The notes under the pieces were generated by a model. It was given only the letters and a program-made list of their open reading frames with translations, made no database searches and was not told where the DNA came from. From positions 1-25,081 of the IMG/VR virus record IMGVR_UViG_3300009155_000234: a DNA stretch of 25,081 bases, one strand, 5' to 3'. Positions 3,988 through 22,413 of this stretch are shown one piece after another; the stretch's first letter is position 1; every line of letters starts with the position of its first letter. This stretch comes from a virus. Made by a program: the position numbers and the translations under genes.

Positions 3988-4965
3988 ATGTTTTATAAAG
4001 ACCACAAGATAGACAATATATCGTTAGACACACGCAGGGTCATCATAGACTGGGTATTGGGCAACTACTGCAATTATCAGTGTTCATATTGTTTTCCAGG
4101 GGCCAACACAGGCACGGATCGTGTACCGCCTTTAGATGACATCATGCGTAACAATGTACGTCATCTAGTATCAGAGTTACAGCGTAACAGTCCAGACCGT
4201 AAGGTATTGTTTACACTAAGTGGTGGTGAGCCTACCCTTTATCATGATATCGATTCTCTTATAGATTTTTTAAAGACATTAGGTGCTGTAGGCATCATAA
4301 CCAATGGATCGCGTACTATACGTTGGTGGGAGTCTAACGGTCCTAAATTTTACAGTGCTATCATATCTTATCACATGCACAAAGCTGAATATCAACACAT
4401 AGCCGACATATTAAACCTATTAATGAATAGGGTATGGTTAAGTGTGCATGTAATGGTTGATCCTGATCTGTTTAATGAGTCTATAGCAGTATACGATCGT
4501 TTAACAGAAGAATTCCGTAATAGACCGGTTAACATACAGATAAAGCTGTTACGGGATACGGGAACTAATAAATCTATCAGTTATAAGTCCAAGCACAAGC
4601 GTATTATAAACAGTATACCCTATCGTAAAGATGTAGTACCACCATTACCTGAGACTTACCGTGCTAGGATATTCATGGGATTTACCGATAGAGATCCAGT
4701 TCGATTTACTCCAAAAGAAGTTATTAATCTAACTGGAGACTTTACAGGATACGATTGTTGGGCCCACCATGAGTTCTTACAGATAGACAGCAAGGGTCGT
4801 ATGGGTAAGTTTACCTGTAAGCAGCAGTATAGCGATGCTGTTAGTATATACGATCTGTTATTTCCTGAGCAGTTTTCGTTATCTGCTGATCCTATAGTCT
4901 GTTCTACGGGCAACTGTGGTAATCTAGGTCTTTATCATACCACAAAGAAATTGGTAAATAAATGA
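3988..4965 (+). CDS. Radical SAM enzyme with C-terminal cysteine cluster
   Basis: The 325-residue protein has the [4Fe-4S]/SAM motif CNYQCSYC (C28, C32, C35) and the SAM-binding GGEP at 79-82 (LSGGEPTLYHDI), so it should cleave SAM to a 5'-deoxyadenosyl radical. Four further cysteines at 257, 277, 305 and 310 (CKQQ; VCSTGNCG) suggest an auxiliary cluster of the SPASM/twitch type found in enzymes that modify peptides or proteins. The start is preceded by CATAAATA and no Shine-Dalgarno. Its stop overlaps the start of the next gene (ATGA), coupling it to two tandem small proteins that could be its substrates. The ferredoxin upstream could be its reductant. Both links are inference. Confidence 0.85.
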   Translation: MFYKDHKIDNISLDTRRVIIDWVLGNYCNYQCSYCFPGANTGTDRVPPLDDIMRNNVRHLVSELQRNSPDRKVLFTLSGGEPTLYHDIDSLIDFLKTLGAVGIITNGSRTIRWWESNGPKFYSAIISYHMHKAEYQHIADILNLLMNRVWLSVHVMVDPDLFNESIAVYDRLTEEFRNRPVNIQIKLLRDTGTNKSISYKSKHKRIINSIPYRKDVVPPLPETYRARIFMGFTDRDPVRFTPKEVINLTGDFTGYDCWAHHEFLQIDSKGRMGKFTCKQQYSDAVSIYDLLFPEQFSLSADPIVCSTGNCGNLGLYHTTKKLVNK

Positions 4966-6364: not shown

Positions 6365-6398
6365 TTATTTTTTCCGTTATTATTTGGATATTTATCGA

Positions 6399-6406
6399 AA
6401 TAAATA
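6399..6406 (+). promoter_or_regulatory. Late-promoter-like box AATAAATA, 4 nt from the ATG
   Basis: AATAAATA is followed by TTGC and the ATG at 6411. It matches seven of eight bases of the T4 late consensus. No ribosome-binding site separates it from the start. Confidence 0.4.
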
Positions 6407-6410
6407 TTGC

Positions 6411-7625
6411 ATGGATAACAAAACATTTTGTGTAGCACCGTGGACTCATTATTCAACTTCATCATTAGGACATGGCCGTATATGTTGTCTTAACCATGAT
6501 GTTACTTGGGATCCTACTAAAAGAAAAGAAGCGTTTAACGACCCTCGGTTAATAGCAATTAAACAAGCAATGATAGCGGGCAATAAAGTTAAAGGATGTT
6601 CTAGATGTTATAGTCGTGAATTAGACGGGGGAGAAAGTCTTAGACAAATCTACAATTCTTCTATGATGAAATATCTAGATTTTGAAAAAATAAATGAACC
6701 CGAATATGAAGTCGGAGTTTGGTACGACCTTAATATAAGCAACAAATGTAATCAAAAATGTCGTATATGCGGTCCACAAAGCAGCACGGCTTGGTTTAAA
6801 GATGCAGATCAATTATTTGAAAAAGAAGCTTGGTTTAAAGAAAATGATTGGGATAAGAAATTTCAAAAATATATAGATCTACAAGGCGAGATCCCTACTA
6901 TTATCGAGTATATGAAGAAGGCGCCGGCGATTCAGAATTTAGAATTTAAAGGCGGAGAACCTCTGTACATCGATGGATATAAAATTCTAATGAGAAGGAT
7001 GATCGAAGAAAATATAATCGATAAGGTTAAACTTTTAACAGTAATCACAAATGGTACAGCCTATGATCCGGAAACATTATCATTGCTAAAACATTTTCCA
7101 AAAATTAATTTAATTTTAAGTATTGATGCGACAGAAAAATTACACGAGTATACTAGAGGCACCAGTATATCCTGGGACGATTGTAGAAGAAGTTGGAACA
7201 ATTTATATGATAATCTTATCAATAAATCTCCCAATAATAAATTTTCTATAAACAATGTGATTTACATTTATAATTCATTTAATCATCAAAAATTAAGAGA
7301 TTGGGTTGATGTTGAATTTGGTAAAAAAACTTTTATGAGTAATCAAACATTGTATCATCCTGAATACCTGGGTGTTAATATAATGCCACATAAATTAAAG
7401 AAAAGAGCAGCAAGCATCACTACAAATACATTGGTTAAAAATATATTTTCTAATTCTCCCGAATCTGTCGATCATTTGAAAGTTAATTGTCCTGCAGGTG
7501 TTGAATTTGATATCTATCTACAATCTTTAAGACATAGATTTAAAATTTTTACTAAGAGATTAGATACGCTTCGTGATGAAAATTTACTAGAAATAGTTCC
7601 TGAATTGTCTACTATGCTACAGTAA
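6411..7625 (+). CDS. Radical SAM enzyme with N-terminal twitch/SPASM-like domain
   Basis: From the ATG at 6411 the product is 404 residues. The N-terminal part has cysteines at 7, 25, 26, 63 and 66 (FCVAPW; RICCLNHD; GCSRCYSRE), the pattern of an auxiliary Fe-S domain, and comes before the radical-SAM core motif CNQKCRIC (C113, C117, C120) and GGEP (LEFKGGEPLYIDG). This order, with the twitch-like domain first, reverses the usual C-terminal placement but is known in phage-borne radical-SAM proteins. The frame stays open to a TTG at 6384, but the ATG is preferred and has an AATAAATA box 4 nt upstream. It is AT-richer than its neighbours. Its likely substrate is a peptide, protein or sugar; unknown. 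Confidence 0.85.
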   Translation: MDNKTFCVAPWTHYSTSSLGHGRICCLNHDVTWDPTKRKEAFNDPRLIAIKQAMIAGNKVKGCSRCYSRELDGGESLRQIYNSSMMKYLDFEKINEPEYEVGVWYDLNISNKCNQKCRICGPQSSTAWFKDADQLFEKEAWFKENDWDKKFQKYIDLQGEIPTIIEYMKKAPAIQNLEFKGGEPLYIDGYKILMRRMIEENIIDKVKLLTVITNGTAYDPETLSLLKHFPKINLILSIDATEKLHEYTRGTSISWDDCRRSWNNLYDNLINKSPNNKFSINNVIYIYNSFNHQKLRDWVDVEFGKKTFMSNQTLYHPEYLGVNIMPHKLKKRAASITTNTLVKNIFSNSPESVDHLKVNCPAGVEFDIYLQSLRHRFKIFTKRLDTLRDENLLEIVPELSTMLQ

Positions 7626-8349: not shown

Positions 8350-8567
8350 TAGCGATTGTAAGAATCGATATCGCTAAACTTTAAATCAAATAGGAGCGCA
8401 CTGTTAGCGTCGGGGAATTTAACCTCAAATACGCTAACAATCGCTCCTGACCCTTCACGGAAATAACTATATTGGACTTTTATATCTTTTTGTGATATAA
8501 GCCAGTCATGTACTTCGCATTCGCGTTCCATTGGTAATGCAGTAAACTTATAAATCCTCGTTAACAC
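8346..8567 (-). CDS. Conserved-looking hypothetical protein (73 aa)
   Basis: The 73-residue product has an alternating hydrophobic pattern suggesting a small alpha/beta fold (MLTRIYKFTALPMERECEV, then GAIVSVFEVKFPDANSALLF). Its start lies 20 nt inside the 3' end of the helicase gene, so it is the last gene of the leftward replication block. Part of it (8392-8448) is covered by a long inverted repeat. I do not recognise the family. Confidence 0.6.
   Translation of the reverse strand: MLTRIYKFTALPMERECEVHDWLISQKDIKVQYSYFREGSGAIVSVFEVKFPDANSALLFDLKFSDIDSYNRY
8392..8448. repeat. Two-tier inverted repeat inside the 73-aa gene
   Basis: AGGAGCG (8392-8398) pairs with CGCTCCT (8442-8448), and TTAGCGT (8404-8410) pairs with ACGCTAA (8431-8437). 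A 5/4-nt internal loop separates the tiers and a 20-nt terminal loop closes the structure. It lies 43 nt past the stop of the rightward phasin-like gene and inside the last leftward gene, so either message would carry it near its 3' end. No T-run follows. Confidence 0.7.
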
Positions 8568-9960
8568 TTAGATTACCTAACAATTCTCTTAATTTACTAG
8601 ATCCAGTCTCAGCTCTGACTCTACCCATCTCTTTAATTGGATCTGCTTCCTCGCTTGATCTCGTTACAGTCGATCTACTTTTGATACTCTCTGCGATACG
8701 ATTACGACCACCATTTGGATTATATTCATCATCGCCTTCTTCGCAGTCTGTGATTCTCAGTGTATCCGGATCAAACGCTAGATCTACCTTCTGTCCTACG
8801 CCGCTACTACTACGTGTTTTCATGAACTGTATCTGATATCTTCCACGTTCGCGCATAGCTCTTGATGTAAAGATACCGATCACGTTATCTGCTGTTTGTA
8901 TCTTTGATAGCCCGCCTGAGATATGGCTGTGATCGAATTCTACTTCTTCAACTGCTGCTCTGTTTAACTGGCTTGCAGTTACAGTGATAGCACCGATCTC
9001 CATCGCAAAGTTTCTCAGTTCTTCACTAACATATTTGTCTTTGATAAACAGATTTTCTGGGCTGATCTTAATAGATATCGGCATCAATAGATCGAGATAA
9101 TCGATCAAGATAACATCGGGCGTGAGCCCTTTGCGTATACTATATTCTTTAACATATGCTCTTAGGTCGTTTACAGTTTTACCACTGGGCATATATTTTA
9201 CCTGTATCGCCCCGCTACGTTTACCTGCGACCCTAACTTTAAGTTCAACTTCGTCGATGCTTTTAAAGATTTCACGTGTAGTAATGCCAGTAATCATACT
9301 ATCTATACGCATACTAGTTAATGCTTCACTAAGTTCTAGTGTAATGTATAGTACATTGAGATTAGCTGTTGCAAAATTAACTGCTAAGTTCTGTAAGAAT
9401 AGACTCTTACCAGCACCAGATCCTCCGCAGAAGATATTAAGTTCGCCTCGATTAAAACCGCCATACAGTTTCTGATCAACTGCTTTCCATCCAGTGCTCA
9501 ACTGTCCATTATTATCTTTAAGTGCTAATAGTCTCGCCCTCGGATCATAGAAGTAATCAGTACCCATATCTTTAGCTAGACTGATCTGCACTGCTGCTTT
9601 GATTTTTGCCTCAACAGGACCGTATTCGCCTTTTTCTAAAAGATCAGCCGATTCGAGAATCGCACGTTCCAGTGCTTTGTGCCTACTAAATCTTTCAAAC
9701 TCGTCTAATAACCATTCGTAGTTCTCTTTTGGAATATCAGTACAGTCATTTAGTGACATACCAGTTTCTGCGCTAATGATTCTCAATTCAGGCATGACTT
9801 TATATTTGTCTACATAATTTTTTAAATTCTCTGCTACTGGTTGCAGTTTTCGATCGAAGTTTGCAGGATCAAAGATATTTTGACAACGTACAAATGTCTC
9901 AGCGTCTGCCAAGAACATCTCGAGATAGAGTTTTTGTATGTCGTAATTATAATCAGCCAT
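8548..9960 (-). CDS. 41: Replicative DNA helicase (T4 gp41-type, DnaB family)
   Basis: The 470-residue protein is a hexameric 5'-3' helicase that unwinds the fork with the primase encoded next to it. Seen: Walker A GGSGAGKS at about 179-186, Walker B VILIDYLDLL at about 283-292, and the DnaB-type segments ITLELSEALTSMRID and TASQLNRAAVEE. The N-terminal 130 residues match the helical DnaB/gp41 primase-interaction domain. The tail (residues about 405-470) is charged and likely flexible. Length fits T4 gp41 (475 residues). It overlaps the primase gene by 8 nt, so primase and helicase are co-translated, as suits partners in one primosome. Confidence 0.93.
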   Translation of the reverse strand: MADYNYDIQKLYLEMFLADAETFVRCQNIFDPANFDRKLQPVAENLKNYVDKYKVMPELRIISAETGMSLNDCTDIPKENYEWLLDEFERFSRHKALERAILESADLLEKGEYGPVEAKIKAAVQISLAKDMGTDYFYDPRARLLALKDNNGQLSTGWKAVDQKLYGGFNRGELNIFCGGSGAGKSLFLQNLAVNFATANLNVLYITLELSEALTSMRIDSMITGITTREIFKSIDEVELKVRVAGKRSGAIQVKYMPSGKTVNDLRAYVKEYSIRKGLTPDVILIDYLDLLMPISIKISPENLFIKDKYVSEELRNFAMEIGAITVTASQLNRAAVEEVEFDHSHISGGLSKIQTADNVIGIFTSRAMRERGRYQIQFMKTRSSSGVGQKVDLAFDPDTLRITDCEEGDDEYNPNGGRNRIAESIKSRSTVTRSSEEADPIKEMGRVRAETGSSKLRELLGNLSVNEDL

Positions 9961-10942
9961 TTTGTATTATATTACCTATCTTCTTTGTACGCAATCTTAT
10001 CTTTAGTTCGTTTGATTCTACAGCTTTAATTATGCTCACCATAGTAGCCAGTCTACCGTAACGTAACACAGCATCACCTGCATCTTTTACAGTTTCATGC
10101 CATTCGGGAAAGCTTACGCTCCAGCCTAACCTTATAGCATGTTCGATCATCTTTTCACCAGGTGTATCTTTGTCGGGCACTACTATCACCTGACGATCTA
10201 ACTTGTTAATCTGTTGCGCCTGTTCATCTGCAATTTCGTTAGTAAGCACTGCTACACCATCCAGTAGTATAGCATCAATACTTCCTTCGAATACCAATAC
10301 GAACTTCCTATCCCACCCTTGCCTATCTAGGTTAAACACGATATGTGGAGGATGTTCAGTTATATATTTAGGTTTACCATCTCCAAGTTTACGTCCAATA
10401 TATCCAACTATCTTACGTTCTACAGTTAACGGAATGATCATACGATCAACAAATCCTGGTTTATCGCTCCAGTAGAAATCGTAATCATCTAAGGTCATTC
10501 CTCTGCTATAGATATATTCCACGACTGGTATGACACGCTCGTCTTGTTGTATTAGATCTGTCGTGATCTTCTGCGTATTTTCGGGCATATCTCTAGGAAC
10601 AAAGCTAATAGGTTGTATGACTTTATCGCTAGCACCAGTTGCTTCGAGTTTCATGCATTCGAACGCTATACGATTAACTTGATCATCTGTAGCACCGAAC
10701 CACTGTAACAAACTACGCATACGGGCACCTAGATTACGCCCGGGTCTCCAACTAGCTTTCCATCCGCAGTTAAAGCAGTGATAGCTAGCACCGCCGTCGT
10801 CGGTCCTGATCAATCCTCCACGTTTTTTAGTATCTTTGCTCTCGCCATTGTGTACACAGCAAGGTGCATTGAAGCTTACCCACCCGTTAGGAGTTTGCTT
10901 CTTACGCGGCAATAGTGCGTAGAGTTCTTCATATACAGACAT
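9953..10942 (-). CDS. 61: DNA primase (T4 gp61-type, DnaG-like)
   Basis: The 329-residue protein makes RNA primers for lagging-strand synthesis. An N-terminal zinc-binding domain is visible (C28-x2-H31 and C56-x2-C59, in CCVHNGES and YHCFNCGWK). The catalytic TOPRIM fold follows with the acidic motif FVLVFEGSIDAILL (E219) and VVPDKDTPGE (D257, D259). The segment DRMIIPLTVERKIVGYIGRKL is the usual DnaG lead-in to TOPRIM. Length matches T4 gp61 (342). The gene begins 9 nt after the structural gene upstream ends, and overlaps the helicase downstream. Confidence 0.92.
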   Translation of the reverse strand: MSVYEELYALLPRKKQTPNGWVSFNAPCCVHNGESKDTKKRGGLIRTDDGGASYHCFNCGWKASWRPGRNLGARMRSLLQWFGATDDQVNRIAFECMKLEATGASDKVIQPISFVPRDMPENTQKITTDLIQQDERVIPVVEYIYSRGMTLDDYDFYWSDKPGFVDRMIIPLTVERKIVGYIGRKLGDGKPKYITEHPPHIVFNLDRQGWDRKFVLVFEGSIDAILLDGVAVLTNEIADEQAQQINKLDRQVIVVPDKDTPGEKMIEHAIRLGWSVSFPEWHETVKDAGDAVLRYGRLATMVSIIKAVESNELKIRLRTKKIGNIIQNG

Positions 10943-10951
10943 ATAAACATT

Positions 10952-11746
10952 TTAGCTTCTATAGATGATTTTGTCAACCGTGCCAGTATTAGTTAGGGAT
11001 GGCATTACACGAAAACGTACAGAAGTAAATACACCGTTAAAATTTTGGAATAGCAGAGTATCAAGTGCAGTGACCGTGATATCCATTAGATCACACCATT
11101 GATTTAGACCGTTAGTACCGTGTTCTAACGTTATCTGTATACTAACTACTCCATCGAAGTTTGTAGCGTAGATCGCTGTACTGTGTAATGCATTAGTGCC
11201 TTTATTATCTGGACGAGCATCTAGTGCAGATGTATACAGTGAATCATCTGGTTGTGGATAATTTAATGTTTGTGAGTTAACAAATTCTGTAACTACCTGA
11301 GATGGATATACTTGAGGGAACGAGTTTGATATTACTTCTACAGGAACACTCGCACCGTATTGGCTGTCTCCGTATAGGATAGTTTTAGTACCTGTCGGGC
11401 TTACTAGGTATGTGCTGTACATATAGTTTCCGCTCTTCACTGGCATTAGATCTCCCTCTGACAGTGTTAACGATACTAGTGAATTATCTCTACCCTGCAC
11501 CTCTTTAGAAACTTTACATACTAGTTCAGATGTATCTCGATCTAGCATTATCCAGTTTACTGTATATCCTACTACATCGATCGGTTTTTGATCACCATTC
11601 AACAGTTTTACTTCGAATGTGTTATCTATACCTTTATAAAGCTTAAGTGTTTTCGCATACATTTTTCTATATCCTGTGTTAAGAGTCACCAGATCTGTGT
11701 AAAGATACTGGATGTTTTTATATAAATACGCAGGCTGTTTAAGCAT
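10952..11746 (-). CDS. Putative virion/tail structural protein, BppU-N-like
   Basis: This 264-residue protein is beta-rich. Residues about 30-130 resemble the immunoglobulin-like N-terminal domain of phage baseplate/tail proteins (LKLYKGIDNTFEVKLLNGD, KPIDVVGYTVNWIMLD, LTLSEGDLMPVKSGNYMYS: a bounded gain, tilt and rate pattern often called BppU-N). The C-terminal half (ITLEHGTNGLNQWCDLMDI; FTSVRFRVMPSLTNTGTVDKII) looks like a second beta-sandwich. A CATAAATA box 19 nt upstream supports a late gene starting at 11746; an internal Met at codon 29 (MYAKTLKLYKG) with AGGAT upstream is a credible alternative start. Its place between replication genes is odd for a structural gene. Confidence 0.65.
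   Translation of the reverse strand: MLKQPAYLYKNIQYLYTDLVTLNTGYRKMYAKTLKLYKGIDNTFEVKLLNGDQKPIDVVGYTVNWIMLDRDTSELVCKVSKEVQGRDNSLVSLTLSEGDLMPVKSGNYMYSTYLVSPTGTKTILYGDSQYGASVPVEVISNSFPQVYPSQVVTEFVNSQTLNYPQPDDSLYTSALDARPDNKGTNALHSTAIYATNFDGVVSIQITLEHGTNGLNQWCDLMDITVTALDTLLFQNFNGVFTSVRFRVMPSLTNTGTVDKIIYRS
11721..11728 (+). promoter_or_regulatory. T4-type late promoter TATAAATA (rightward)
   Basis: An exact late-consensus box sits inside the 5' end of the leftward structural gene, 42 nt before the ATG of the rightward gene at 11771. With the leftward box at 11766-11773 it makes a facing pair. Confidence 0.5.
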
Positions 11747-11765: not shown

Positions 11766-11773
11766 TATTTATG
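11766..11773 (-). promoter_or_regulatory. T4-type late promoter CATAAATA (leftward)
   Basis: Read on the minus strand, CATAAATA lies 19 nt before the ATG at 11746. It overlaps the ATG of the rightward gene at 11771. Confidence 0.45.
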
Positions 11774-12142
11774 ATTAATTTAACAGATAAAATCCAGGAT
11801 CAATTTCCATTTATAACTGTAATCACTTATGGTAATCACGAATATGTTGGAATAATAATAAATCAAGACAACAATATCACGAGTGTTTACGATTACAATC
11901 TGTTAAAGGTAGAAGATCATAAAAGAGTATTTTTAGAATTAGGCGAGGTTTGGTGGTGGGAATCAAATAGATTACTTCCAATCAACATATTTCTACGTAA
12001 GGAAATGGAACCGTTTCGTTACGCTATAAAAAATTTTAGTACTAAAGACGTATCTATTTTAATGGGTCCGGTAGTAAACTTAAACAATATAATACTCAAA
12101 CGTGTTAAACGCCGTAGCATACAGATGTTACGTAAGCGTTAA
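11771..12142 (+). CDS. Hypothetical protein (123 aa)
   Basis: This lone rightward gene within the leftward block encodes 123 residues, beta-rich at first (FPFITVITYGNHEYVGIIINQDNNITSVYDY, an SH3-barrel-like pattern) and then WWWESNRLLPINIFL and a strongly basic end (LKRVKRRSIQMLRKR). The basic tail suggests nucleic-acid contact. TATAAATA 42 nt upstream marks it as late. It converges with the next gene, sharing 4 nt. The family is not named, though the pattern suggests a conserved phage protein. Confidence 0.65.
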   Translation: MINLTDKIQDQFPFITVITYGNHEYVGIIINQDNNITSVYDYNLLKVEDHKRVFLELGEVWWWESNRLLPINIFLRKEMEPFRYAIKNFSTKDVSILMGPVVNLNNIILKRVKRRSIQMLRKR

Positions 12143-12648
12143 AGAATTTTTAAAAACCAAACGTAATTTGGCCCAACATCATAATAGTTAAACTGCTCGT
12201 TTACTGCTTGACTAACCCCTGGATAATCTATGTCGTGCCCACTCAATAGACCTCCCAACTTAATCTTCGGCTTATAATCAATGATATCATTCTTTACATA
12301 TTCGTATGAATGGTTAGCATCAATGAACACTAGATCTACGCTATCGTCGGGTATCTGTTTAGCAACATCATGACTGTAACCTCTTATGGGAATCAATCTG
12401 TCTTTATATTTTTCTTTAACATCTTTTGTATAGAACAGCGTAGTATCTGAGTCGATAGCATAGTATCGTTCTATACACTCGCAGTTATCTAAAAGATGGA
12501 ACGTGGTGCGTCCGTCTCTTACACCTACTTCTACTATGGTTTTATATTGATTTTGATTTATCGTATGTTGTAAGAAGTGTTTTCTATTCGATTTTCCTTC
12601 CCAATCGATAGTCATTGGAACTGATAGTCGATCTGTACGTTTAGGCAT
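12139..12648 (-). CDS. Class I SAM-dependent methyltransferase
   Basis: The 169-residue protein has the SAM-binding motif I (IVEVGVRDGRTT), the acidic residue ending beta-2 (YYAIDSD), and the motif IV-like DSVDLVFIDANHSYEYVKNDI typical of the Methyltransf_24 group, followed by LGGLLSGHDIDYPGVSQAV. Such proteins often act on sugars or small molecules. It overlaps the DnaE-like gene by 8 nt upstream. It is one of four methyltransferases in the window. Substrate unknown. Confidence 0.85.
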   Translation of the reverse strand: MPKRTDRLSVPMTIDWEGKSNRKHFLQHTINQNQYKTIVEVGVRDGRTTFHLLDNCECIERYYAIDSDTTLFYTKDVKEKYKDRLIPIRGYSHDVAKQIPDDSVDLVFIDANHSYEYVKNDIIDYKPKIKLGGLLSGHDIDYPGVSQAVNEQFNYYDVGPNYVWFLKIL

Positions 12649-13225
12649 ATTCCCAGCTCACTTGTTCACATATTAAGTTTAACTGTAACACTATAGCACA
12701 AGCATATGCGATAGCATGTGATTTTTTGAAGAAGTATAGATCACCCGACGTGGGTTTAATCCATACTACTTTCAAAATCGCATCCCAATCGTCGTAGTAT
12801 TCGAGATATCTTTTAGCGGGACGTATAATAGCTAGTACTGCTGCTAGCTGTTCGATGCTAGTAGGTTTTAATCTACGAACGATATTATAATGGTCTGAAA
12901 TATGAAACAGTTTTTCTACTATTTCTCTGTGTTCTAGCAAGTCCCACAGTGGCTCAGTATCTAACAGCTTTTTCAGATGATCTTCATCTTTAACACCATT
13001 ATACAGTCCAACATTTAGGAAATCTATTTTAAAGTAACCTCGAGATTCAGCAGCTTCGTATTCTATAGTTGTTAGATTAGTAAACGGGTCGTATGGAATC
13101 TCCTGGAAGTAAACACCTGTATTGTGTTTAACTTTTTCTTCTTTTTGTACTCGCATAGCGACTCGATGCTCAAGCACCTTAAGAGCAGTATTTCGATCTA
13201 AAAAATCTATATCAATATCGGGCAT
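12641..13225 (-). CDS. Miniature DnaE (DNA polymerase III alpha)-like protein
   Basis: In only 194 residues the protein keeps, in order, hallmark DnaE blocks: MPDIDIDFLDR at the N-terminus (E. coli PDFDVDF with catalytic D401/D403, here D5 and D7), HNTGVYFQEIPYDPFTN (compare the DnaE H-x-x-GV...P block), GYFKIDFLNVGL (compare KFDFLGLRTL, catalytic D555; here D68), LKPTSIEQLAAVLAIIRPAKR (compare P-SFEDL...ALYRPGP) and FFKKSHAIAYACA (compare FNKSHAVAYA). About 90 residues present in DnaE between the first two blocks are missing, as are the PHP, OB and tau-binding parts. It is unlikely to be a full polymerase. It is coupled to a 67-aa gene upstream. The homology is convincing; the role is unknown. 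Confidence 0.8.
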   Translation of the reverse strand: MPDIDIDFLDRNTALKVLEHRVAMRVQKEEKVKHNTGVYFQEIPYDPFTNLTTIEYEAAESRGYFKIDFLNVGLYNGVKDEDHLKKLLDTEPLWDLLEHREIVEKLFHISDHYNIVRRLKPTSIEQLAAVLAIIRPAKRYLEYYDDWDAILKVVWIKPTSGDLYFFKKSHAIAYACAIVLQLNLICEQVSWEYA

Positions 13226-13428
13226 TAGTGTTTCGTTGGTCCGGTGAATAATAGTGGTATTTGTGTTTTCATAAATTCAGCAAATTGTTTCATCTGTCGT
13301 TCGTCTCTAAATCCGTCAAATTTTATATAAACACAAGCATCGTCATCTAGTAGGAATTTGTAACTTAAATCGACTTCTTCAATAATATCTTCTATTGAAT
13401 GTAGTTCTAGGGAGTTATCAGTTATCAT
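13225..13428 (-). CDS. Small acidic hypothetical protein (67 aa)
   Basis: It is joined by one-base TAATG overlaps to the zinc-finger gene before it and the DnaE-like gene after it. The 67 residues are acidic in the first half (SIEDIIEEVDLSYKFLLDDDACVYI) and carry an amphipathic helix (RDERQMKQFAEFMKTQI) and a GPTKH end. The coupling suggests it works with one of its neighbours, perhaps as a small partner. Family not recognised. Confidence 0.6.
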   Translation of the reverse strand: MITDNSLELHSIEDIIEEVDLSYKFLLDDDACVYIKFDGFRDERQMKQFAEFMKTQIPLLFTGPTKH

Positions 13429-14165
13429 TAGATTTTAGCCTCCTTGATCATGTTTTTAACAAATTCAAGGTCTGACTTTTGTTTCTTAAACTTATCTGTC
13501 CAAAACACCACATCGATCATTGGACCAATAGTTTGAAGTTGCTCGTCAGTCATCTTCTTGAGTGATGCTACACCATTATCGGAATTTAGCAATATCCAAG
13601 GAGATACCTTGCCGTCCCGCACGTCATATGTTATCCTGTTCAGATTAGCATATGAGAAGTAGTGATTCCATTGGGCTGAGTTTTTTTCAGCCCAATCGCA
13701 CATTGTATTTATGGTTCTTTCGGCTGCGGATTCTACACCCTCATTACGAATTAGATCTACAACATACTTGTCATAGAGTTCTTCTCGACACCATTTATCT
13801 AGGGGAATATTACTACGTATAATCCAATCGATGTATTTGTCTGGATACAGCGGATTAACATTGCTCATAAAGCTACCAAACTTTACGAAAGCATTATAAT
13901 AAGCACTTTTACAGAAATCTTCGTATGTCTTTTCAGTCTTGTTACTTTGCGTTAGTTTGTAAAATCGATCATATACATAGAATCCGCTCTGTACTCTACG
14001 TTCATCTTTTTGCATATATCTGCGTTTAGGTTCACACATATGTACTGTTAGAGTTTTTTCTTTAACGAACCCTTTGTCGCAGAATCTACATGTATATGGT
14101 TTAGAGATCTTTGAGCTCCTTGTCTGACCAACCGATTTCTCTAGCAAGCTCTTTAAGTTCATCAT
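13428..14165 (-). CDS. Zinc-finger (CCHC-type) conserved phage protein
   Basis: The 245-residue product has a zinc finger near the N-terminus, YTCRFCDKGFVKEKTLTVHMC, with ligands C26, C29, H42 and C44, followed by a basic EPKRR. The rest is helical (YYNAFVKFGSFMSNVNPLYPDKYIDWI; LDKWCREELYD) with no recognised catalytic motif. I associate this architecture with proteins of marine T4-like phages near the clamp-loader genes, from memory. Its first 65 nt overlap the gene upstream in another frame; a shorter form starting at the second Met (14162) is possible. A DNA- or RNA-binding role is likely from the finger alone. Confidence 0.7.
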   Translation of the reverse strand: MMNLKSLLEKSVGQTRSSKISKPYTCRFCDKGFVKEKTLTVHMCEPKRRYMQKDERRVQSGFYVYDRFYKLTQSNKTEKTYEDFCKSAYYNAFVKFGSFMSNVNPLYPDKYIDWIIRSNIPLDKWCREELYDKYVVDLIRNEGVESAAERTINTMCDWAEKNSAQWNHYFSYANLNRITYDVRDGKVSPWILLNSDNGVASLKKMTDEQLQTIGPMIDVVFWTDKFKKQKSDLEFVKNMIKEAKI

Positions 14166-14571
14166 TTGTACTGATCTCCAATAAAGTTTCTATATCTGCA
14201 GGTTTTAATGTTGGGTAGACACTGTTTAATAGTTTAGCACGTTTACTGTTGTTCTTCTTTTTCTGAGACATTCCGAGCCATTCGTGGAAGAATATCTTTT
14301 CACCATCCCAGTTACACATACACAATAACTGCCAAGCTAGCTTAGGATGTTTTTGTATATCGCTCCAGTTCTTATTAAAGTATTCATTAACAGTTAGCAC
14401 GAAGTGTTCCATCTGTTCTCGATTACTTGTTTTTACGTTACTAATATATCGATTTAATATCCAGAATTCATTCTTAACGTTCTTGCGTTGTTCATCATCT
14501 AGTTCATCCCACATACTACGTGCGTTAAGATCAACTGCGGCTATAACTTCTTTAAGAGGTACTTTTGTCAT
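14101..14571 (-). CDS. Candidate clamp-loader small subunit (gp62-like) or unknown
   Basis: The 156-residue, mainly helical protein shows the features NRYISNV, then FVLTVNEYFNKNW, HPKLAWQLLCMC, FFHEWLG and YPTLKPADIETLLEISTNDELKELAREIGW. The order NR-x-x-S, NE, HP-x-L, F-x-x-W and a C-terminal helix pair recalls gp62 of T4-like phages, which joins gp44 to load the sliding clamp gp45. The similarity is weak, and neither gp44 nor gp45 is next to it here, which argues against. Overlaps of 20 nt with the gene before and 65 nt with the zinc-finger gene after show tight packing. Treat the name as a hypothesis. Confidence 0.4.
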   Translation of the reverse strand: MTKVPLKEVIAAVDLNARSMWDELDDEQRKNVKNEFWILNRYISNVKTSNREQMEHFVLTVNEYFNKNWSDIQKHPKLAWQLLCMCNWDGEKIFFHEWLGMSQKKKNNSKRAKLLNSVYPTLKPADIETLLEISTNDELKELAREIGWSDKELKDL

Positions 14572-14808: not shown

Positions 14809-15468
14809 CTATTTGTATATCTTTTCTACAAACTTATATTTTCCGTGCCATATGTCGGGGGTGTCTTTCCAAACACCAGTAATTTGATCATCGATCCAAT
14901 GATCGTAATGCATACGGTCTTTGAACCACCAGAATAGATTTTGATCTTTCCATTCGTTAAAGTATCTCTTAAAAAATTGTCTATCTCTAGGATCTCTAAA
15001 AAATTTTGTATCGTAAAACATTTTTTTAGCCTTAGCTGGATTCGAAAAATTTAATCCGATAAAGCAGAATTTATCAGTATAAGATTCCAGTTCTTTAGCT
15101 ACCCAACCTAGATCATCATCGGGAATAGCACTTAATACTTGATTGCAAATAACACCATCAAATTTAGTACCTTTCGGTGGTGGTTCTTTAAATTGTTCTA
15201 TACAAGGATCGTATTTGTAAACTTTTACACCTAGCCATTCGTTGAATGTCTGTAATCGATCTTCTGACTCATATGGTAAAGGAGTAGTATATTGTAACCC
15301 TTTACCACAGCCATAATCTAGTATAGTTTTAGCATCATATCTAACTACTAGATCTTTGATCTGTTTTTGATACTTTATAGTATCTAGACCGGCCCAGCTT
15401 TTATTTTCTTTTTGGAACTTAGTTCCGGCTTCAACTGACTCATCATAATAACTAGATTTTAAACTCAT
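14809..15468 (-). CDS. Class I SAM-dependent methyltransferase, tandem copy 2
   Basis: The 219-residue protein has motif I TILDYGCGKGLQY at about residues 45-57 and an acidic beta-2 end (VYKYDPCIEQF), then FDGVICNQVLSAIPDDDL in the motif IV/post-I position. Its long C-terminal part is rich in aromatic residues (FFKRYFNEWKDQNLFWWFKDRMHYDHW), unusual for the fold and perhaps a substrate-binding cap. It overlaps the methyltransferase upstream by 4 nt (ATGA). Both share ILD-[FY]-GCGKG and Y-x-YDP or GYDP, so they are likely diverged paralogues. Substrate unknown. Confidence 0.8.
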   Translation of the reverse strand: MSLKSSYYDESVEAGTKFQKENKSWAGLDTIKYQKQIKDLVVRYDAKTILDYGCGKGLQYTTPLPYESEDRLQTFNEWLGVKVYKYDPCIEQFKEPPPKGTKFDGVICNQVLSAIPDDDLGWVAKELESYTDKFCFIGLNFSNPAKAKKMFYDTKFFRDPRDRQFFKRYFNEWKDQNLFWWFKDRMHYDHWIDDQITGVWKDTPDIWHGKYKFVEKIYK

Positions 15469-16019
15469 TTTTTGATTGTAACTCCATATTTTATTATTCT
15501 AATCTCAGGTCCTTTTTTAGGCTGTGTGACTCGATCGATTATACGTTTGTTATACATGGCTAAACCCAATACATCTTCTAACTTCTTTTCCCACCATTCG
15601 GGGGGTTCAACGATGAGATGTGCATTACGTCCGTCGCTTAATTGCTTTTTTGATAAATGACATGCTATCAGATGATACATTACCTTTCCACATCTATCGG
15701 CAAGATCAACTAGTGTTTCATCTAGTTTATCAGGTTCGATATGTTCGAGTACATCTTCTGAGAATATCATATCAACCTTATCGGGCAGTGTATTGTATGT
15801 TTCGTGTCCGGGATCGTAACCAAATACTTTAATATGTGGATATGTTTCGATTATTTTTTCAACGACAGTACCTTTACCACAGCCAAAGTCTAAAATACTT
15901 TTCACATCGTATGCTTCGATGCAACGTATCACTTCATCGGGTATTCTTACACCTCTTCCGAAATTTTCTCGGTTTTTGTGTAAATTCTTCATTTCTTTTT
16001 TATATTCTTCTGATATCAT
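15465..16019 (-). CDS. Class I SAM-dependent methyltransferase, tandem copy 1
   Basis: The 184-residue protein has motif I SILDFGCGKGTVVEKI, beta-2 end VFGYDPGHETY, and FSEDVLEHIEPDKL, the D-V-L-EH signature of the Methyltransf_11/23 type. It is followed by CHLSKKQLSDGRNAHLI and PPEWWEKKLED. It starts 1 nt after the stop of the 168-aa gene upstream and is coupled to its paralogue downstream. There is no target-recognition domain or DPPY-type motif, so DNA methylation is unlikely; small molecules or sugars are likelier. Confidence 0.85.
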   Translation of the reverse strand: MISEEYKKEMKNLHKNRENFGRGVRIPDEVIRCIEAYDVKSILDFGCGKGTVVEKIIETYPHIKVFGYDPGHETYNTLPDKVDMIFSEDVLEHIEPDKLDETLVDLADRCGKVMYHLIACHLSKKQLSDGRNAHLIVEPPEWWEKKLEDVLGLAMYNKRIIDRVTQPKKGPEIRIIKYGVTIKK

Positions 16020-16538: not shown

Positions 16539-17987
16539 TTAGATATCCACTTTTGTAACAGCGAATGGATATTGTGCGTCTTTATAAAATTTCTTACGTT
16601 CTGTTAAATGTCTTTTAGCATACTTACAAGTACTGGTTATATCCCAAATTTGCACAAAATCTTTATCCTCAGCTTTTCTAATTCCTCTACCAATAGACTG
16701 GATGACACGAACAAAAGACTTACCAGGCTCCAAAAGAATAAGATTAAAAATACGGGGGATATTAATACCAACAGCAGCAACACCATAGGTAGCGATGATA
16801 ACTTTATTGTCGCTCGTTTTAATTTCGTCATATTCCTCTTTCCTGTTTTTTGTTTTAACAGCACCACTGATAAAAACGCTGTCAGGTATCTCGTCGATTA
16901 ATATTTTCCCAGTATCAATACGGTTAACTAATACAAGAGTATTTCCGGTAAGTGCGATATCTTTGATCTTATTTGCCATCCATGTCATACGTGTTGGATC
17001 AGATACTAGATACTTGTATTCGTCAGCATATGAGCGAAATTCTTTAACATCAGTAGTTTGCAAAATGCTAACGTGACATTGTGCAAGTACACCTTTTTCC
17101 TGTAATTGATGTGCAGTAACGTGATGTATAACGTCTCCAATACTGCAACGTATTGATTCAAATTCAAATTTTTCTTTAGGAACAGTGCCAGTTAATCCCC
17201 AACGGATTGGAGCATTGGCAAAGTTAATAGTTAATAGTTTTTTGAGAACATCTGCCTTTGCTTGATGTACTTCGTCGATGATAACGGCCGCCACGCCTTC
17301 GGTAAATTCAGCTAGAGTTAGTGCTTCAGTGTCGTGGCTTTTTTTATCTAATATATTGAGACTCTGCCACGTACATATTGTATGTGTCTTACCTAGTTCT
17401 TTGCGATCACCGTAGTATACTCCAACATCTAATCCGACATTCCTATAGTCTTCTTCGGTCTGTTCTACTAGGCTTTTGTTAGGAACGATTATCATTGATC
17501 GCCCGTATTTCTCACACAATTTACTCAGTGTAGCAGTCATGATAGTCTTACCTGCACCGGTAGCAACTTCTTGTAGGGCTTGCGGAGTTTTTAAGAAGTT
17601 GTTAACAACTTCGACTTGATCGTCACGTAGTCTTATTGGTTGTCCGGCAAATCTGTGTCCTGTGGGCCAACATAGATCTCCCCAAAACTCTTCGGTTATT
17701 TCTTCAAATTTGATAGCAGGATGATGCCTTAGATCTTCGACTTCTAAGTCGTAGTCCAACGATTCTAATATAGGCAATATGTCATTTAGTTGATTAATAT
17801 ATCCAGTTCCGCCGACTCCGAAAAAAGCCACAGTACCATCCCATCTGCCCAAACGATAGCTGGGCTGATACCGTGCCCATGGTACTTCAAATTTAAATTT
17901 ATTTGCTAGTTTGCGCCTAGCATTTAAATCGAGACCTTCAAATTTAATGTTTACTTCGTCTTTGATTATCAGCTTACAGGTCGGCAA
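16539..17987 (-). CDS. uvsW: UvsW RNA-DNA/DNA-DNA helicase
   Basis: The 482-residue superfamily-2 helicase has Walker A VATGAGKTIM at about 141-150, motif II IIDEVH at 236-241 (DEVH), motif III GLTGT, and motif VI QSIGRGIRK. Its first 100 residues, with YRLGRWDGTVAFF and a small DNA-binding fold, match UvsW rather than other SF2 helicases. In T4 UvsW unwinds R-loops and branched DNA and drives the switch from origin-dependent to recombination-dependent replication. It uses a TTG start at 17987, supported by AAGGAAAAAC 2 nt upstream of that codon, and overlaps the gene before it by 14 nt. Length fits T4 UvsW (503). Confidence 0.92.
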   Translation of the reverse strand: MPTCKLIIKDEVNIKFEGLDLNARRKLANKFKFEVPWARYQPSYRLGRWDGTVAFFGVGGTGYINQLNDILPILESLDYDLEVEDLRHHPAIKFEEITEEFWGDLCWPTGHRFAGQPIRLRDDQVEVVNNFLKTPQALQEVATGAGKTIMTATLSKLCEKYGRSMIIVPNKSLVEQTEEDYRNVGLDVGVYYGDRKELGKTHTICTWQSLNILDKKSHDTEALTLAEFTEGVAAVIIDEVHQAKADVLKKLLTINFANAPIRWGLTGTVPKEKFEFESIRCSIGDVIHHVTAHQLQEKGVLAQCHVSILQTTDVKEFRSYADEYKYLVSDPTRMTWMANKIKDIALTGNTLVLVNRIDTGKILIDEIPDSVFISGAVKTKNRKEEYDEIKTSDNKVIIATYGVAAVGINIPRIFNLILLEPGKSFVRVIQSIGRGIRKAEDKDFVQIWDITSTCKYAKRHLTERKKFYKDAQYPFAVTKVDI

Positions 17988-19182: not shown

Positions 19183-20043
19183 CTATTTGGTCCATGAAGT
19201 CAATGCTTGTGATAGTCGATCTAGTGGTATACCTTGAGAAATCTCATCTAAACTCCATTCATTGTATACTAGATCGTTAAGCCACTGTTCTCTGTCGGGC
19301 ATCTGAGGATTTTCTATATCAGCTAAGTTTAAATTACCTACCGGTGCTGCAAGACTATTAGGACCAACAAATGCAGGAACTCCATTTATTACGGCTTGCG
19401 AAGCGGGATTGCTGTTCCAATTTACTACTGCCCATGCAGACTGTAGCGCATTTTCAAAATCATATGAATCATATGTTCCGGGTATCTTTTGTGGGGTTTG
19501 TGATATTATGTTAATATGATTTTCTTCGTAATGTTGATTGAGCCTGGGGTGTGATCTCACTATAATCCTGCGATTAGATCTCTTGCGAATGTCTAAAATT
19601 ACACGATGTAGCCATTGATCGATAGGTGGCATATTTTCCCATTGCTGGCTCATAGTATGTTGGCAACATATCACTATATCTTTACCCTGTTTCCAAGGTT
19701 TCAATTTTATTCCTAGTTGCTTTCGTCGCCGATCGTCGTTGTTTGAAGGACCAAAGTACGCAGAACCATTGACTCCGTTAATTCCGATTTTCCACAAAAA
19801 TCCACGATTTAATCCACCAATTTCCAAAACAATTATTGGTTTATTTTTGTTTTTAAAGTAGTCCCAAACTGCTTGATTTTCTTTCATTCGACCATTCCAA
19901 AGCACCGACCATATGACTGCAACGTCAGCATTTAGGTTATGTTCAGACACTATCCAACCTCTGTCTTTGACAGAATTTGAAAAAGCTTCGAACACCGGTT
20001 TACTATTTAAAGCGCCAAATTTATTAAATGTACCAAATATCAT
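19183..20043 (-). CDS. Capsule-type glycosyltransferase-like protein (paralogue 1)
   Basis: Taking the ATG at 20043 the product is 286 residues (MIFGTFNKFGALNSK). The open frame extends to 20115 but would enter the coding start of the rightward gene and add an unlikely leader. Motifs KGKDIVICCQH-like (GKDIVICCQH), WLHRVILDIRKRSNRRIIVRSHPR, VVNWNSNPASQAVINGVPAFVG and LADIENPQMPDREQWL define a domain shared with the 21502 and 22379 genes. The HP and the N-[ST]-x-P-x-x-x-[AS]-x-x-x-G-x-P elements recall the KpsS/KpsC capsule-polysaccharide transferase group with a GT-B fold. It probably acts on a surface sugar in the cytoplasm. There is no clear ribosome site. Confidence 0.7.
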   Translation of the reverse strand: MIFGTFNKFGALNSKPVFEAFSNSVKDRGWIVSEHNLNADVAVIWSVLWNGRMKENQAVWDYFKNKNKPIIVLEIGGLNRGFLWKIGINGVNGSAYFGPSNNDDRRRKQLGIKLKPWKQGKDIVICCQHTMSQQWENMPPIDQWLHRVILDIRKRSNRRIIVRSHPRLNQHYEENHINIISQTPQKIPGTYDSYDFENALQSAWAVVNWNSNPASQAVINGVPAFVGPNSLAAPVGNLNLADIENPQMPDREQWLNDLVYNEWSLDEISQGIPLDRLSQALTSWTK

Positions 20044-20046
20044 TGT

Positions 20047-20054
20047 TATAAATA
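20047..20054 (+). promoter_or_regulatory. T4-type late promoter TATAAATA
   Basis: An exact late-consensus box in the 36-nt gap between two diverging genes. It lies 25 nt before the TTG start at 20080, with AAAGGAT between as ribosome site. Confidence 0.6.
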
Positions 20055-20079
20055 TAGCATCATTTAAAGGATAGAGCAA

Positions 20080-20889
20080 TTGAAGTATGCGGTAGTAACT
20101 ACATTTCATAAGCAAGGTTATGATATGTATGGTAAAAAAATGATACAGAGTTTTTTAAAAAATTGGCCAAAAGAAATCAATCTTTATGTTTATCACCAGG
20201 ATGTAATTCCATCAGAACGAGGCGACAATCTCATATTAATGGATTTAGAATCAACTTGTCCTGATCTAGTACGATTTAAAAATAAATGGAAGAATGATCC
20301 CAATGCTAGAGGCAATGTTGACGATAGTTCTGCTCATATTAAGTTAGCAAAAAGAGATAAAGTAGGATTCAAGTGGGATGCTATTAGGTTCAGTCATAAG
20401 GTTTATGCTATATTCCATTGTGCTAAAACCTGCGATGCTGATGTACTGTTTTGGATGGATGCTGATACAATATGTCATAGTCCCATTCCGTTTGACTTTA
20501 TACAATCAATGGCACCATCGACAACTGATCTAGGTTTCCTAGGTAGAGAAAATAAGTATAGCGAATGTGGTCTTTATAGTATGAATCTAAGAAGTAGCAT
20601 TTTACAAGAATTCTTAGGAAAGTTCCAATGGGTTTATGACCATGCAGAACAGGGTATTTTTACATTTAAAGAATGGCATGACAGTTTTGTATTTGATCGT
20701 GTTAGGGAAATGGTCACTTCGATGAAAGAATTTAATTGGAGTGAGGGGTTAATTAACGGTGAAGGTCACCCCTTAATTAATTCGCCTTGGGGTGCATATT
20801 TAGATCATCTTAAAGGAAAAAGAAAGATCTATGGAAAGAGCGAAAGAGCAGATTTAAAAGTAACAAGAACAGAGGATTATTGGCGATGA
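20080..20889 (+). CDS. GT-A glycosyltransferase
   Basis: The 269-residue protein starts at a TTG (20080), backed by AAAGGAT about 8 nt upstream and the natural N-terminus KYAVVTTFHKQGYDMYGKKM, a Rossmann-like first strand. The DxD motif WMDADT (D127-A-D129) binds a metal and a nucleotide sugar in GT-A enzymes. WDAIRFSHKVYAIFH before it and SECGLYSMNLRSS, EWHDSFVFDRV and HPLINSPWGAYLDHLKG after it are typical of a phage and bacterial GT-A group I recognise only by style. Its stop overlaps the FkbM gene (ATGA). Together they form a rightward pair lodged among leftward transferases. Confidence 0.8.
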   Translation: MKYAVVTTFHKQGYDMYGKKMIQSFLKNWPKEINLYVYHQDVIPSERGDNLILMDLESTCPDLVRFKNKWKNDPNARGNVDDSSAHIKLAKRDKVGFKWDAIRFSHKVYAIFHCAKTCDADVLFWMDADTICHSPIPFDFIQSMAPSTTDLGFLGRENKYSECGLYSMNLRSSILQEFLGKFQWVYDHAEQGIFTFKEWHDSFVFDRVREMVTSMKEFNWSEGLINGEGHPLINSPWGAYLDHLKGKRKIYGKSERADLKVTRTEDYWR

Positions 20890-21545
20890 AGCAAGTACAC
20901 AATTTTTGGTTTCCGGATTACGAAACACATTTTCCTAGAATGCTAGATAAAAGTATGCACAATACAGGCATTGCAAGGTATCAATGGCAAGCAAGAGAGT
21001 TTGCTATAAACTCATGTGAGCAGAAAAGAAATTGCATAGATATAGGGTCAAATGTTGGACTATGGAGCTGTGACTTAGTTAAACATTTTGAACAAGTAAT
21101 CGCTTTTGAACCTGTACAAGATTCTATTGATTGTTTTAAAAAGAATGTTTTAACTGACAATTATGTTATACATCAGGTAGCATTAGGTAATGAAGATTCA
21201 TTTATAGATATGAATATAGTAGAAGGTAATTCTGGACATAGTCACATAAATCCAGAATCAATCGGTAAGGGTAAGATTCCTCTAAAAACACTTGACAGTT
21301 TTAATTTCAAAGAAATAGATATGATTAAAATAGATGTTGAAGGATTTGAAGAAGAGATTCTTAGAGGTGCAGAAAACACTATAAAATCTAATAAACCATT
21401 GATGATCGTTGAACAACAGGACCATGGATACAAAAATGCAAAAGCTACATTACCATCGGTTCATATATTGCAGAGCTGGGGATATGTTGTTTTAGAACAG
21501 TTCAAAAAAGACTGGGTTTTAAAATACCGAGGCGTTCGCGCATAA
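20886..21545 (+). CDS. FkbM-family SAM methyltransferase
   Basis: From the coupled ATG at 20886 the product is 219 residues; a TTG two codons earlier is a poor alternative. Motif I NCIDIGSNVGLWSCDL, the beta-2 end VIAFEPVQDSIDCF and the FkbM hallmarks LDSF...IDMIKIDVEGFEEEILRGA and KPLMIVEQQ are clear. FkbM proteins commonly O-methylate sugars, which suits the transferase next to it. Its 3' end overlaps the oppositely directed gene at 21502 by 44 nt, so the two messages can pair. Confidence 0.88.
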   Translation: MKQVHNFWFPDYETHFPRMLDKSMHNTGIARYQWQAREFAINSCEQKRNCIDIGSNVGLWSCDLVKHFEQVIAFEPVQDSIDCFKKNVLTDNYVIHQVALGNEDSFIDMNIVEGNSGHSHINPESIGKGKIPLKTLDSFNFKEIDMIKIDVEGFEEEILRGAENTIKSNKPLMIVEQQDHGYKNAKATLPSVHILQSWGYVVLEQFKKDWVLKYRGVRA

Positions 21546-22413
21546 ATTTCCAAGCATCACCGGAACGGATTTCGTCTTCGTTCCAGTGACTTTGGCATAT
21601 ACGGTGTATCCAAGCATCGCGATCAAAATGTTCAGGATTTTCTATCTTATCAAGTGATGTATTACATATAGGATATGTTTGACTTCTATAAAATTTTGGA
21701 TCAGTAACAAAAGCTGGAACACCCTCAATTAAGCTAGCAACGCCTGGACTGCTATTAAATGTTACTGTAGCATGTGCTTTATCTAAATCTTCTAATATCG
21801 ATGCGCTGTTACTAATACGACATCTATTATCAACTCGTATAGTTTGTTGTCGACGATCGCCTGGATGTTTTCTAACCAATATAGGTCTATCGGTGTGTTT
21901 ACGTATTTCTGCTACGGTTTGATCTAACCAATTTTGTACATCAGTTCCGTCCATACTCCACCCGTCCACTCGTTGCAGGCATATAAGTATGTGTTTTCCT
22001 TTCCTATAGTCTCGCAACGCGATCCCAAGTCGCTGACTAATAGATCGCCATCGATCGCGAGATATCTTATTATCAAAGTAAAATCCTGTATCAGGAAAGA
22101 CATCATTTAAACTATATCTTAGATAATAATTCGCCAATCCGGCATTAGCAAATTGAAATAAATTACTGTCAATTATTATAGTATTTTGATTTGAATCTAA
22201 TACATCTCTGCGTAACTTTAAATGTGGAGAAGATATGTCCTGATGAACATATCCTTGTAATATAGCTACATCACTTTTTACTACAGTATGGTGATCAACA
22301 AATTCAATACTATCGCCGGAGACTGCTGCTCCGACGCCAAATGTTTTTAATATGGCAATTTTTATCTCGTTTTTATTTTTAGGAACTGCTGCTAGATAAA
22401 TCGCTATTTTCAT
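21502..22413 (-). CDS. Capsule-type glycosyltransferase-like protein (paralogue 2)
   Basis: The 303-residue protein shares with paralogue 1 the run KGKHILICLQRVDGWSM, VQNWLDQTVAEIRKHTDRPILVRKHPGD, TFNSSPGVASLIEGVPAFV and LDKIENPEHFDRDAWIHRI, ending WNEDEIRSGDAWKFMRERL. HP and the NSSP...G-x-P loop are intact, so it may be active. The first 100 residues (MKIAIYLAAVPKNKNEIKIAI; VDHHTVVKSDVAILQGYV) form the N-terminal Rossmann-like half. Its 5' end overlaps the longer transferase gene by 35 nt. It may transfer a sugar to a surface glycan or to another acceptor. Confidence 0.72.
   Translation of the reverse strand: MKIAIYLAAVPKNKNEIKIAILKTFGVGAAVSGDSIEFVDHHTVVKSDVAILQGYVHQDISSPHLKLRRDVLDSNQNTIIIDSNLFQFANAGLANYYLRYSLNDVFPDTGFYFDNKISRDRWRSISQRLGIALRDYRKGKHILICLQRVDGWSMDGTDVQNWLDQTVAEIRKHTDRPILVRKHPGDRRQQTIRVDNRCRISNSASILEDLDKAHATVTFNSSPGVASLIEGVPAFVTDPKFYRSQTYPICNTSLDKIENPEHFDRDAWIHRICQSHWNEDEIRSGDAWKFMRERLGILKPSLF

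What the first reader, a model, noticed from the sequence alone, without database searches (positions are those of the whole stretch)
12641..13225. A 194-aa miniature DnaE retaining all three catalytic aspartates
PDIDIDF (D5, D7), the H-x-x-GV block, KIDFLN (D68), KPTSIEQLAAVLAIIRPA and KKSHAIAYA follow one another in DnaE order while the PHP, much of the fingers and palm, OB and clamp-binding parts are gone. T4-like phages use gp43 (family B), so a C-family remnant beside replication genes is unexpected. Keeping the active-site residues in such a reduced protein suggests selection, perhaps as a decoy, a clamp-loader or polymerase-exchange factor, or a reduced nucleotidyl transferase.
Basis: partly seen in the sequence, partly recalled or inferred. 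Interest (0 to 1): 0.8.

Follow-up and report, generated by a model that had tools for sequence, protein, structure and literature searches.

The report
Half of a split phage polymerase
The 194-residue protein is not a lone degenerate polymerase: it is one half of a stripped-down bacterial-type DNA polymerase that large phages encode as two separate genes, described from genomes in 2021 but not, as far as I could find, tested in the laboratory.

Summary
The ORF is real (window 12641-13225, minus strand, 194 aa) and belongs to a large phage family under purifying selection (phrog_11778; at least 597 IMG/VR candidates, 63 phage records). It is homologous to DnaE; its predicted fold covers E. coli DnaE ~400-781. 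All are invariant in the 84 sequences compared.

The missing upstream palm is not lost. In all 11 phage genomes examined, a second ~175-aa gene elsewhere (phrog_11127) carries the GRGS half and stops at the residue matching E. coli ~393, where this protein takes over. Across 50,697 phage records the halves almost always co-occur, beside a family B polymerase. This is the 'split minimal Pol III alpha' of Iyer et al. 2021 (PMC7824862); I found no biochemical test.

Best reading: the catalytic/fingers subunit of a two-chain minimal C-family polymerase. The partner is not in this 25-kb window, so it is inferred here. New side observation: many IMG/VR contigs carry this half plus a single-chain, PHP-less ~550-aa DnaE after the helicase gene.

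The parts
12641..13225 (-). C-terminal half of the split minimal DnaE (194 aa, phrog_11778): D3/D5/D68 = E. coli D401/D403/D555; H34-x-x-G37; R135-P136; K168/H170 = E. coli K758/H760 (putative steric gate)
13225..13428 (-). 67-aa ORF immediately upstream, overlapping the ATG (TAATG); homologues at 9 of 102 related loci
13428..14165 (-). conserved neighbour, 245 aa, phrog_11058, weak C2H2-like zinc finger; present at 99 of 102 related loci
14101..14571 (-). conserved neighbour, 156 aa, phrog_11758; present at 96 of 102 related loci
12139..12648 (-). class I methyltransferase (Methyltransf_24), overlapping the 3' end of the DnaE half; a local insertion here (hits at 4 of 102 loci), not part of the conserved system
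11771..12142 (+). convergent 123-aa gene, phrog_11637, on the opposite strand just downstream in 96 of 102 related loci
10952..11746 (-). conserved virion-structural-like neighbour (86 of 102 loci)
9953..10942 (-). gp61-type DNA primase (weak Toprim/DnaG-N hits), conserved neighbour (89 of 102 loci)
8548..9960 (-). gp41/DnaB-type replicative helicase, conserved neighbour (74 of 102 loci; 61 of 63 with enough flank)
16539..17987 (-). UvsW-type helicase upstream, conserved neighbour (84 of 102 loci)

Best explanation
The protein is the C-terminal subunit of a two-chain, minimal C-family (DnaE/Pol III alpha-like) DNA polymerase. It supplies the catalytic aspartates (D3, D5, D68) and a shortened fingers domain with the steric-gate histidine (H170). 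A separate ~175-aa protein encoded elsewhere in the phage genome supplies the first half of the palm with the GRGS loop that holds the incoming triphosphate. The two chains are expected to pair non-covalently and rebuild one Pol-beta-type palm, giving a small, probably distributive polymerase that works beside the phage's gp43-like family B replicase, for example in repair, gap filling or primer hand-off near the gp61/gp41 primosome. Shown: homology, fold, retained residues, exact complementarity of the split, co-occurrence of the halves in relatives, conserved gene order. Inferred: heterodimer formation, catalytic activity, the precise role, and the presence of the N-half in this phage, whose genome is known only as this 25-kb fragment.
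For: C-half: phrog_11778 E=2e-70; AF2 model pLDDT 91.7 aligns over 189 residues to Taq DnaE 461-838 (Z 9.9, 4.0 A) and over 188 to E. coli DnaE 400-781 (Z 9.0, 4.2 A). N-half: PF07733 matches in 11 of 11 members; profile hits E. coli DnaE at E=1e-7, ending at residue 393; AF2 pLDDT 91.2, residues 85-178 align to E. coli 279-393 and Mtb 307-413, Z up to 12.3. The break is at one place: 59 of 64 IMG/VR N-halves end exactly 3 residues after the conserved Glu (...EFLK/R), and most C-halves begin 1-8 residues before the first catalytic Asp. All 11 phage genomes examined have both halves plus a PF00136 family B polymerase. Among 50,697 phage records C occurs in 63 and N in 61, essentially the same records. 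Of 11 IMG/VR records of 180 kb or more, 10 have both halves and family B. D3, D5, D7, H34, G37, K66, D68, R135, P136, K138, H170, Y174 invariant in 73/73 and 12/12; N-half G144, G146, R147, G148, S149 invariant in 64/64 and 11/11. dN/dS < 1 in all usable pairs (median 0.20 C, 0.43 N). H170 matches the putative steric gate H760 (PMC8485763). Published independently as a split minimal Pol III alpha (PMC7824862).
Against: No direct evidence of a complex or of activity. The N-half is not in the window. The thumb, the finger segment containing E. coli 'RRAMGKK' (709), the beta-clamp motif and the OB/tau parts are missing, so DNA binding and processivity are unexplained. Sequence-only similarity of the C-half to cellular DnaE is weak (E=0.02-0.8; hhalign probability 6.5% against a single target sequence). 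One 191-kb IMG/VR record has N without C, possibly because it is a fragment.
Confidence: 0.78

Rival explanations
1. The two halves form a complex that is not a polymerase: a nucleotide- or DNA-end-binding accessory (polymerase exchange, primer-terminus sensing, or another nucleotidyl transfer) that keeps the active site for metal and dNTP binding.
For: Thumb, clamp-binding and OB parts are missing; a full family B polymerase is present in the same genomes; the genes sit in the primase/helicase neighbourhood.
Against: Besides the Asp triad, the GRGS loop, the RP motif and the steric-gate His are invariant, which suggests use of dNTPs in templated synthesis.
Confidence: 0.2
2. Stand-alone decoy or inhibitor that mimics DnaE and binds host Pol III partners.
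For: DnaE mimicry; dedicated phage gene.
Against: The beta-clamp motif, OB, tau-binding and PHP parts that contact host Pol III partners are absent. Active-site residues are the most conserved positions, and the partner half co-occurs.
Confidence: 0.03
3. Degenerate relic of a captured host dnaE, drifting to loss.
For: Large deletions relative to DnaE.
Against: Invariant catalytic residues in all 84 sequences compared, dN/dS well below 1 (caveat: dS partly saturated), conserved gene order in about 100 loci.
Confidence: 0.01
4. Two halves of a polymerase joined by split-intein trans-splicing, as in cyanobacterial DnaE.
For: Split dnaE genes joined this way exist in cyanobacteria (own knowledge), and an intein was reported in family B polymerase genes of the relative MIJ3 (PMC6892783).
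Against: The N-half stops within a few residues of the break and the C-half starts 1-20 residues before D3, so there is no room for intein fragments.
Confidence: 0.01

Closest known systems
Split minimal DNA polymerase III alpha of 'group 2.2' jumbo phages (Iyer et al. 2021, PMC7824862); PHROGs 11127 (N) and 11778 (C)
   Same: Same two genes in the same kind of phage, far apart in the genome, beside a family B polymerase; N part NTP-binding, C part metal- and template-binding.
   Different: The window is a fragment with only the C-half in hand; no difference in the C-half itself was found.
Bacterial DnaE / PolC (C-family replicases; E. coli, Taq, Mtb, G. kaustophilus structures)
   Same: Pol-beta-type palm, Asp triad, KxDFL, RP motif, KSH steric-gate helix; same order and fold.
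   Different: Two chains; no PHP, thumb, clamp-binding or OB domains; shortened fingers.
Single-chain PHP-less phage DnaE (~550 aa, phrog_405-like, e.g. L094:16954-18606)
   Same: Palm and fingers with intact motifs, phage-encoded, in the same gene neighbourhood in many IMG/VR contigs that also carry this C-half.
   Different: One chain, longer palm-to-fingers region, extra C-terminal segment; not present in this window.
CBB_328 and similar 'truncated Pol III alpha' annotations in RaK2-like phages (PMC5259590)
   Same: CBB_328 (172 aa) fits the size of the N-half of the same system.
   Different: Described there as a truncated polymerase without recognition of the second half.

Membership tests
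Split minimal Pol III alpha of group 2.2 jumbo phages | C-terminal protein with metal-binding Asp and template-binding part, no other DnaE domains | tested here: met
Split minimal Pol III alpha of group 2.2 jumbo phages | Separate N-terminal NTP-binding (GRGS) protein in the same genome | tested here: inconclusive
   Met in 11 of 11 phage genomes and 10 of 11 large IMG/VR records; absent from this 25-kb fragment, which cannot decide.
Split minimal Pol III alpha of group 2.2 jumbo phages | Accompanied by a family B DNA polymerase | tested here: inconclusive
   Met in relatives; none recognised among the window proteins scanned, as expected of a fragment.
Split minimal Pol III alpha of group 2.2 jumbo phages | T4-like gp41/gp61/UvsW gene context | tested here: met
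C-family DNA polymerase (DnaE/PolC) | Catalytic Asp triad (E. coli D401, D403, D555) | tested here: met
   D3, D5, D68
C-family DNA polymerase (DnaE/PolC) | GRGS phosphate-binding palm segment | tested here: not met
   Not in this chain; in relatives it is on the partner chain
C-family DNA polymerase (DnaE/PolC) | PHP, beta-clamp-binding and OB domains | tested here: not met
   ORF ends after the KKSHAIAYA helix; model aligns only to E. coli 400-781
C-family DNA polymerase (DnaE/PolC) | Pol-beta-type palm fold | tested here: met
   AF2 model, Z 6.5-9.9 to DnaE and PolC chains over 180-190 residues
C-family DNA polymerase (DnaE/PolC) | DNA polymerase activity | not testable with these tools
   needs biochemistry

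The most novel reading that the evidence does not exclude
In a marine-type phage lineage the C-half coexists with a single-chain PHP-less DnaE encoded just downstream of the gp41 helicase, and no N-half or family B polymerase was found in those records. There the C-half may have been re-used, for example as a partner or regulator of the single-chain enzyme, so that the family would include phages replicating with C-family enzymes and no gp43.
Probability: 0.15. Interest if true: 0.75.

Novelty: new member of a known kind. Interest (0 to 1): 0.45.

Why it matters
If active, it would be among the smallest C-family polymerases and one whose active site is assembled from two gene products, a natural test of the minimal parts needed for Pol III catalysis and of why phages with a gp43-like replicase keep a bacterial-type one. 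The idea is published but, as far as I could find in the papers searched, untested. The invariant residues, the exact split and the availability of cultured phages (RaK2, 121Q, PA5oct) make it directly testable.

Tried and rejected
Chance ORF: rejected (family of hundreds). Decoy, relic and split intein: rejected, see rivals. Search for the N-half in the window: none. Fused N+C minimal protein among the fetched loci: none; the only ORF matching both profiles belongs to the longer single-chain DnaE family. Family A polymerase in relatives: none over cut-off. Cellular origin: genome-contig hits are 11 contigs, all in metagenome-assembled genomes, read as mis-binned phage contigs; no isolate. Larger records of the single-chain lineage, to see whether N-half and family B are absent: not found, so that question stays open. 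hhalign against a single E. coli DnaE gave only weak support for the C-half although the fold comparison is clear.

Full report
OBSERVATION. The ORF is at window 12641-13225 on the minus strand (194 aa, ATG). It starts at an overlapping stop/start (TAATG) with a 67-aa ORF and its 3' end overlaps a methyltransferase gene. PHROG scan: phrog_11778 'DNA polymerase', E=2e-70 over almost the full length; the general DnaE family phrog_405 only at 2e-4. Pfam shows only a sub-threshold finger-domain hit. Against PDB sequences the best match is M. tuberculosis DnaE1 with three collinear stretches at E=0.02. A 73-sequence alignment (A3) gave an AlphaFold2 model with pLDDT 91.7. Foldseek ranks DnaE chains first, and VIA-align places 180-190 of 194 residues on DnaE and PolC: Taq 461-838 (Z 9.9, 4.0 A), E. 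coli 400-781 (Z 9.0, 4.2 A), G. kaustophilus PolC 971-1299 (Z 9.8, 3.5 A).

RESIDUE MAPPING. E. coli numbering was computed from the MG1655 dnaE gene. PDFDVDF starts at 400, so D401/D403/D405 = window D3/D5/D7; KFDFL gives D555 = D68; FNKSH gives K758/H760 = K168/H170. The catalytic residues D401, D403, D555 and the presumptive steric gate H760 are as named in PMC8485763. D3, D5, D7, H34, G37, K66, D68, R135, P136, K138, H170 and Y174 are invariant in 73/73 and 12/12 sequences.

THE OTHER HALF. Searching 11 phage genomes with the DnaE family found, besides this family, a second small ORF matching DnaE positions ~360-430 in every genome. These are 170-213-aa open frames, PHROG phrog_11127 and Pfam DNA_pol3_alpha in 11 of 11. 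Their profile hits E. coli DnaE at E=1e-7 and ends at residue 393. The AF2 model (pLDDT 91.2) aligns residues 85-178 to E. coli 279-393 and Mtb 307-413, Z up to 12.3. So the N-half ends at ~393 and the C-half begins at ~400 in the same reference chain. In 59 of 64 IMG/VR N-halves the protein stops exactly three residues after the conserved Glu. The GRGS loop is invariant in all 75 sequences. The first ~80 residues of the N-half have no assigned counterpart here.

CO-OCCURRENCE AND SELECTION. Independent tblastn searches of 50,697 phage records found the C-half in 63 and the N-half in 61. I compared the printed lists: apparent C-only records are a 109-kb partial record and two Alishewanella phages, one of which (Slicko, 141 kb) has a divergent N-half by HMM. 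Lists were cut at 60 rows, so a few records are inferred. Of 11 IMG/VR records of 180 kb or more, 10 carry both halves and family B polymerase. All 11 phage genomes have family B (PF00136) and none has family A over cut-off. Pairwise dN/dS is below 1 for all usable pairs (medians 0.20 C, 0.43 N; many dS values near saturation).

NEIGHBOURHOOD. In about 100 related loci the order is conserved: phrog_11758, phrog_11058 (weak zinc finger), C-half, convergent phrog_11637, structural-like protein, gp61 primase, gp41 helicase, with UvsW upstream. The methyltransferase next to the gene in the window is a local insertion (4 of 102 loci).

PRIOR ART. Iyer et al. 2021 (PMC7824862) state that group 2.2 jumbo phages carry a minimal DNA Pol III alpha split into two proteins encoded by distant genes beside family B, likely to reconstitute a complete enzyme. 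The window protein is a new member. A survey of marine jumbo phages found PF07733, the domain of the N-half and of DnaE generally, in about half of its cluster of largest phages (PMC9123017). Literature searches covered only open PMC papers.

MECHANISM. Shown: homology, fold, retained residues, complementary split, linkage of the halves, conserved primosome-side gene order. Inferred: the two chains pair and the GRGS loop of one faces the Asp triad of the other, making a small dNTP-using polymerase. Without thumb, clamp motif or OB it is probably distributive, suiting short repair or gap synthesis or primer hand-off beside the family B replicase. A non-polymerising complex cannot be excluded.

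SIDE OBSERVATION. Four loci fetched with this family (L069, L080, L094, L103) also hold, ~6 kb downstream, a single-chain PHP-less DnaE of ~550 aa. A search with it gave 308 IMG/VR candidates; 21 of 26 such loci with more than 7.5 kb upstream also carry the C-half. Ten of ten tested IMG/VR records have the C-half but no N-half or family B; these are 42-101-kb fragments, so absence is not proven. The 17 positive records included only two with the single chain, and those had no N-half.

VERDICT. The interpretation as a stand-alone reduced factor is replaced by 'half of a split minimal polymerase', which is published.

Noticed in passing
L094:16954-18606 and L222-L301 (IMG/VR contigs): A single-chain, PHP-less DnaE (~550 aa, intact active-site motifs) lies just downstream of the gp41 helicase in many contigs that also carry the split C-half; no N-half or family B polymerase was found in those (partial) records.
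   Followed up: partly
L006 (Alishewanella phages Slicko01/Slickus01, 141 kb): The split polymerase also occurs in phages below the 200-kb jumbo limit; the N-half there is divergent and is annotated only as hypothetical protein.
   Followed up: partly
window 12139-12648 (-): A Methyltransf_24 gene is inserted between the DnaE half and its usual convergent neighbour and overlaps the 3' end of the DnaE ORF; two further methyltransferase-like ORFs lie at 14809-16019 (by eye, not scanned).
   Followed up: no
window 3450-3788, 3988-4965, 6384-7625 (+): A 4Fe-4S ferredoxin (Fer4 + DUF3470) and two radical SAM proteins in a phage fragment.
   Followed up: no
window 19183-24345: A run of possibly glycan-related ORFs (glycosyltransferase family 8-like, mannose-6-phosphate isomerase-like cupin) and several large ORFs without Pfam hits.
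   Followed up: no
L003:15073-15567 (Atu_ph07 FDI40_gp074): The RefSeq gene start of the C-half is too far downstream and cuts off the catalytic DxD; the match begins at about L003:15001.
   Followed up: no
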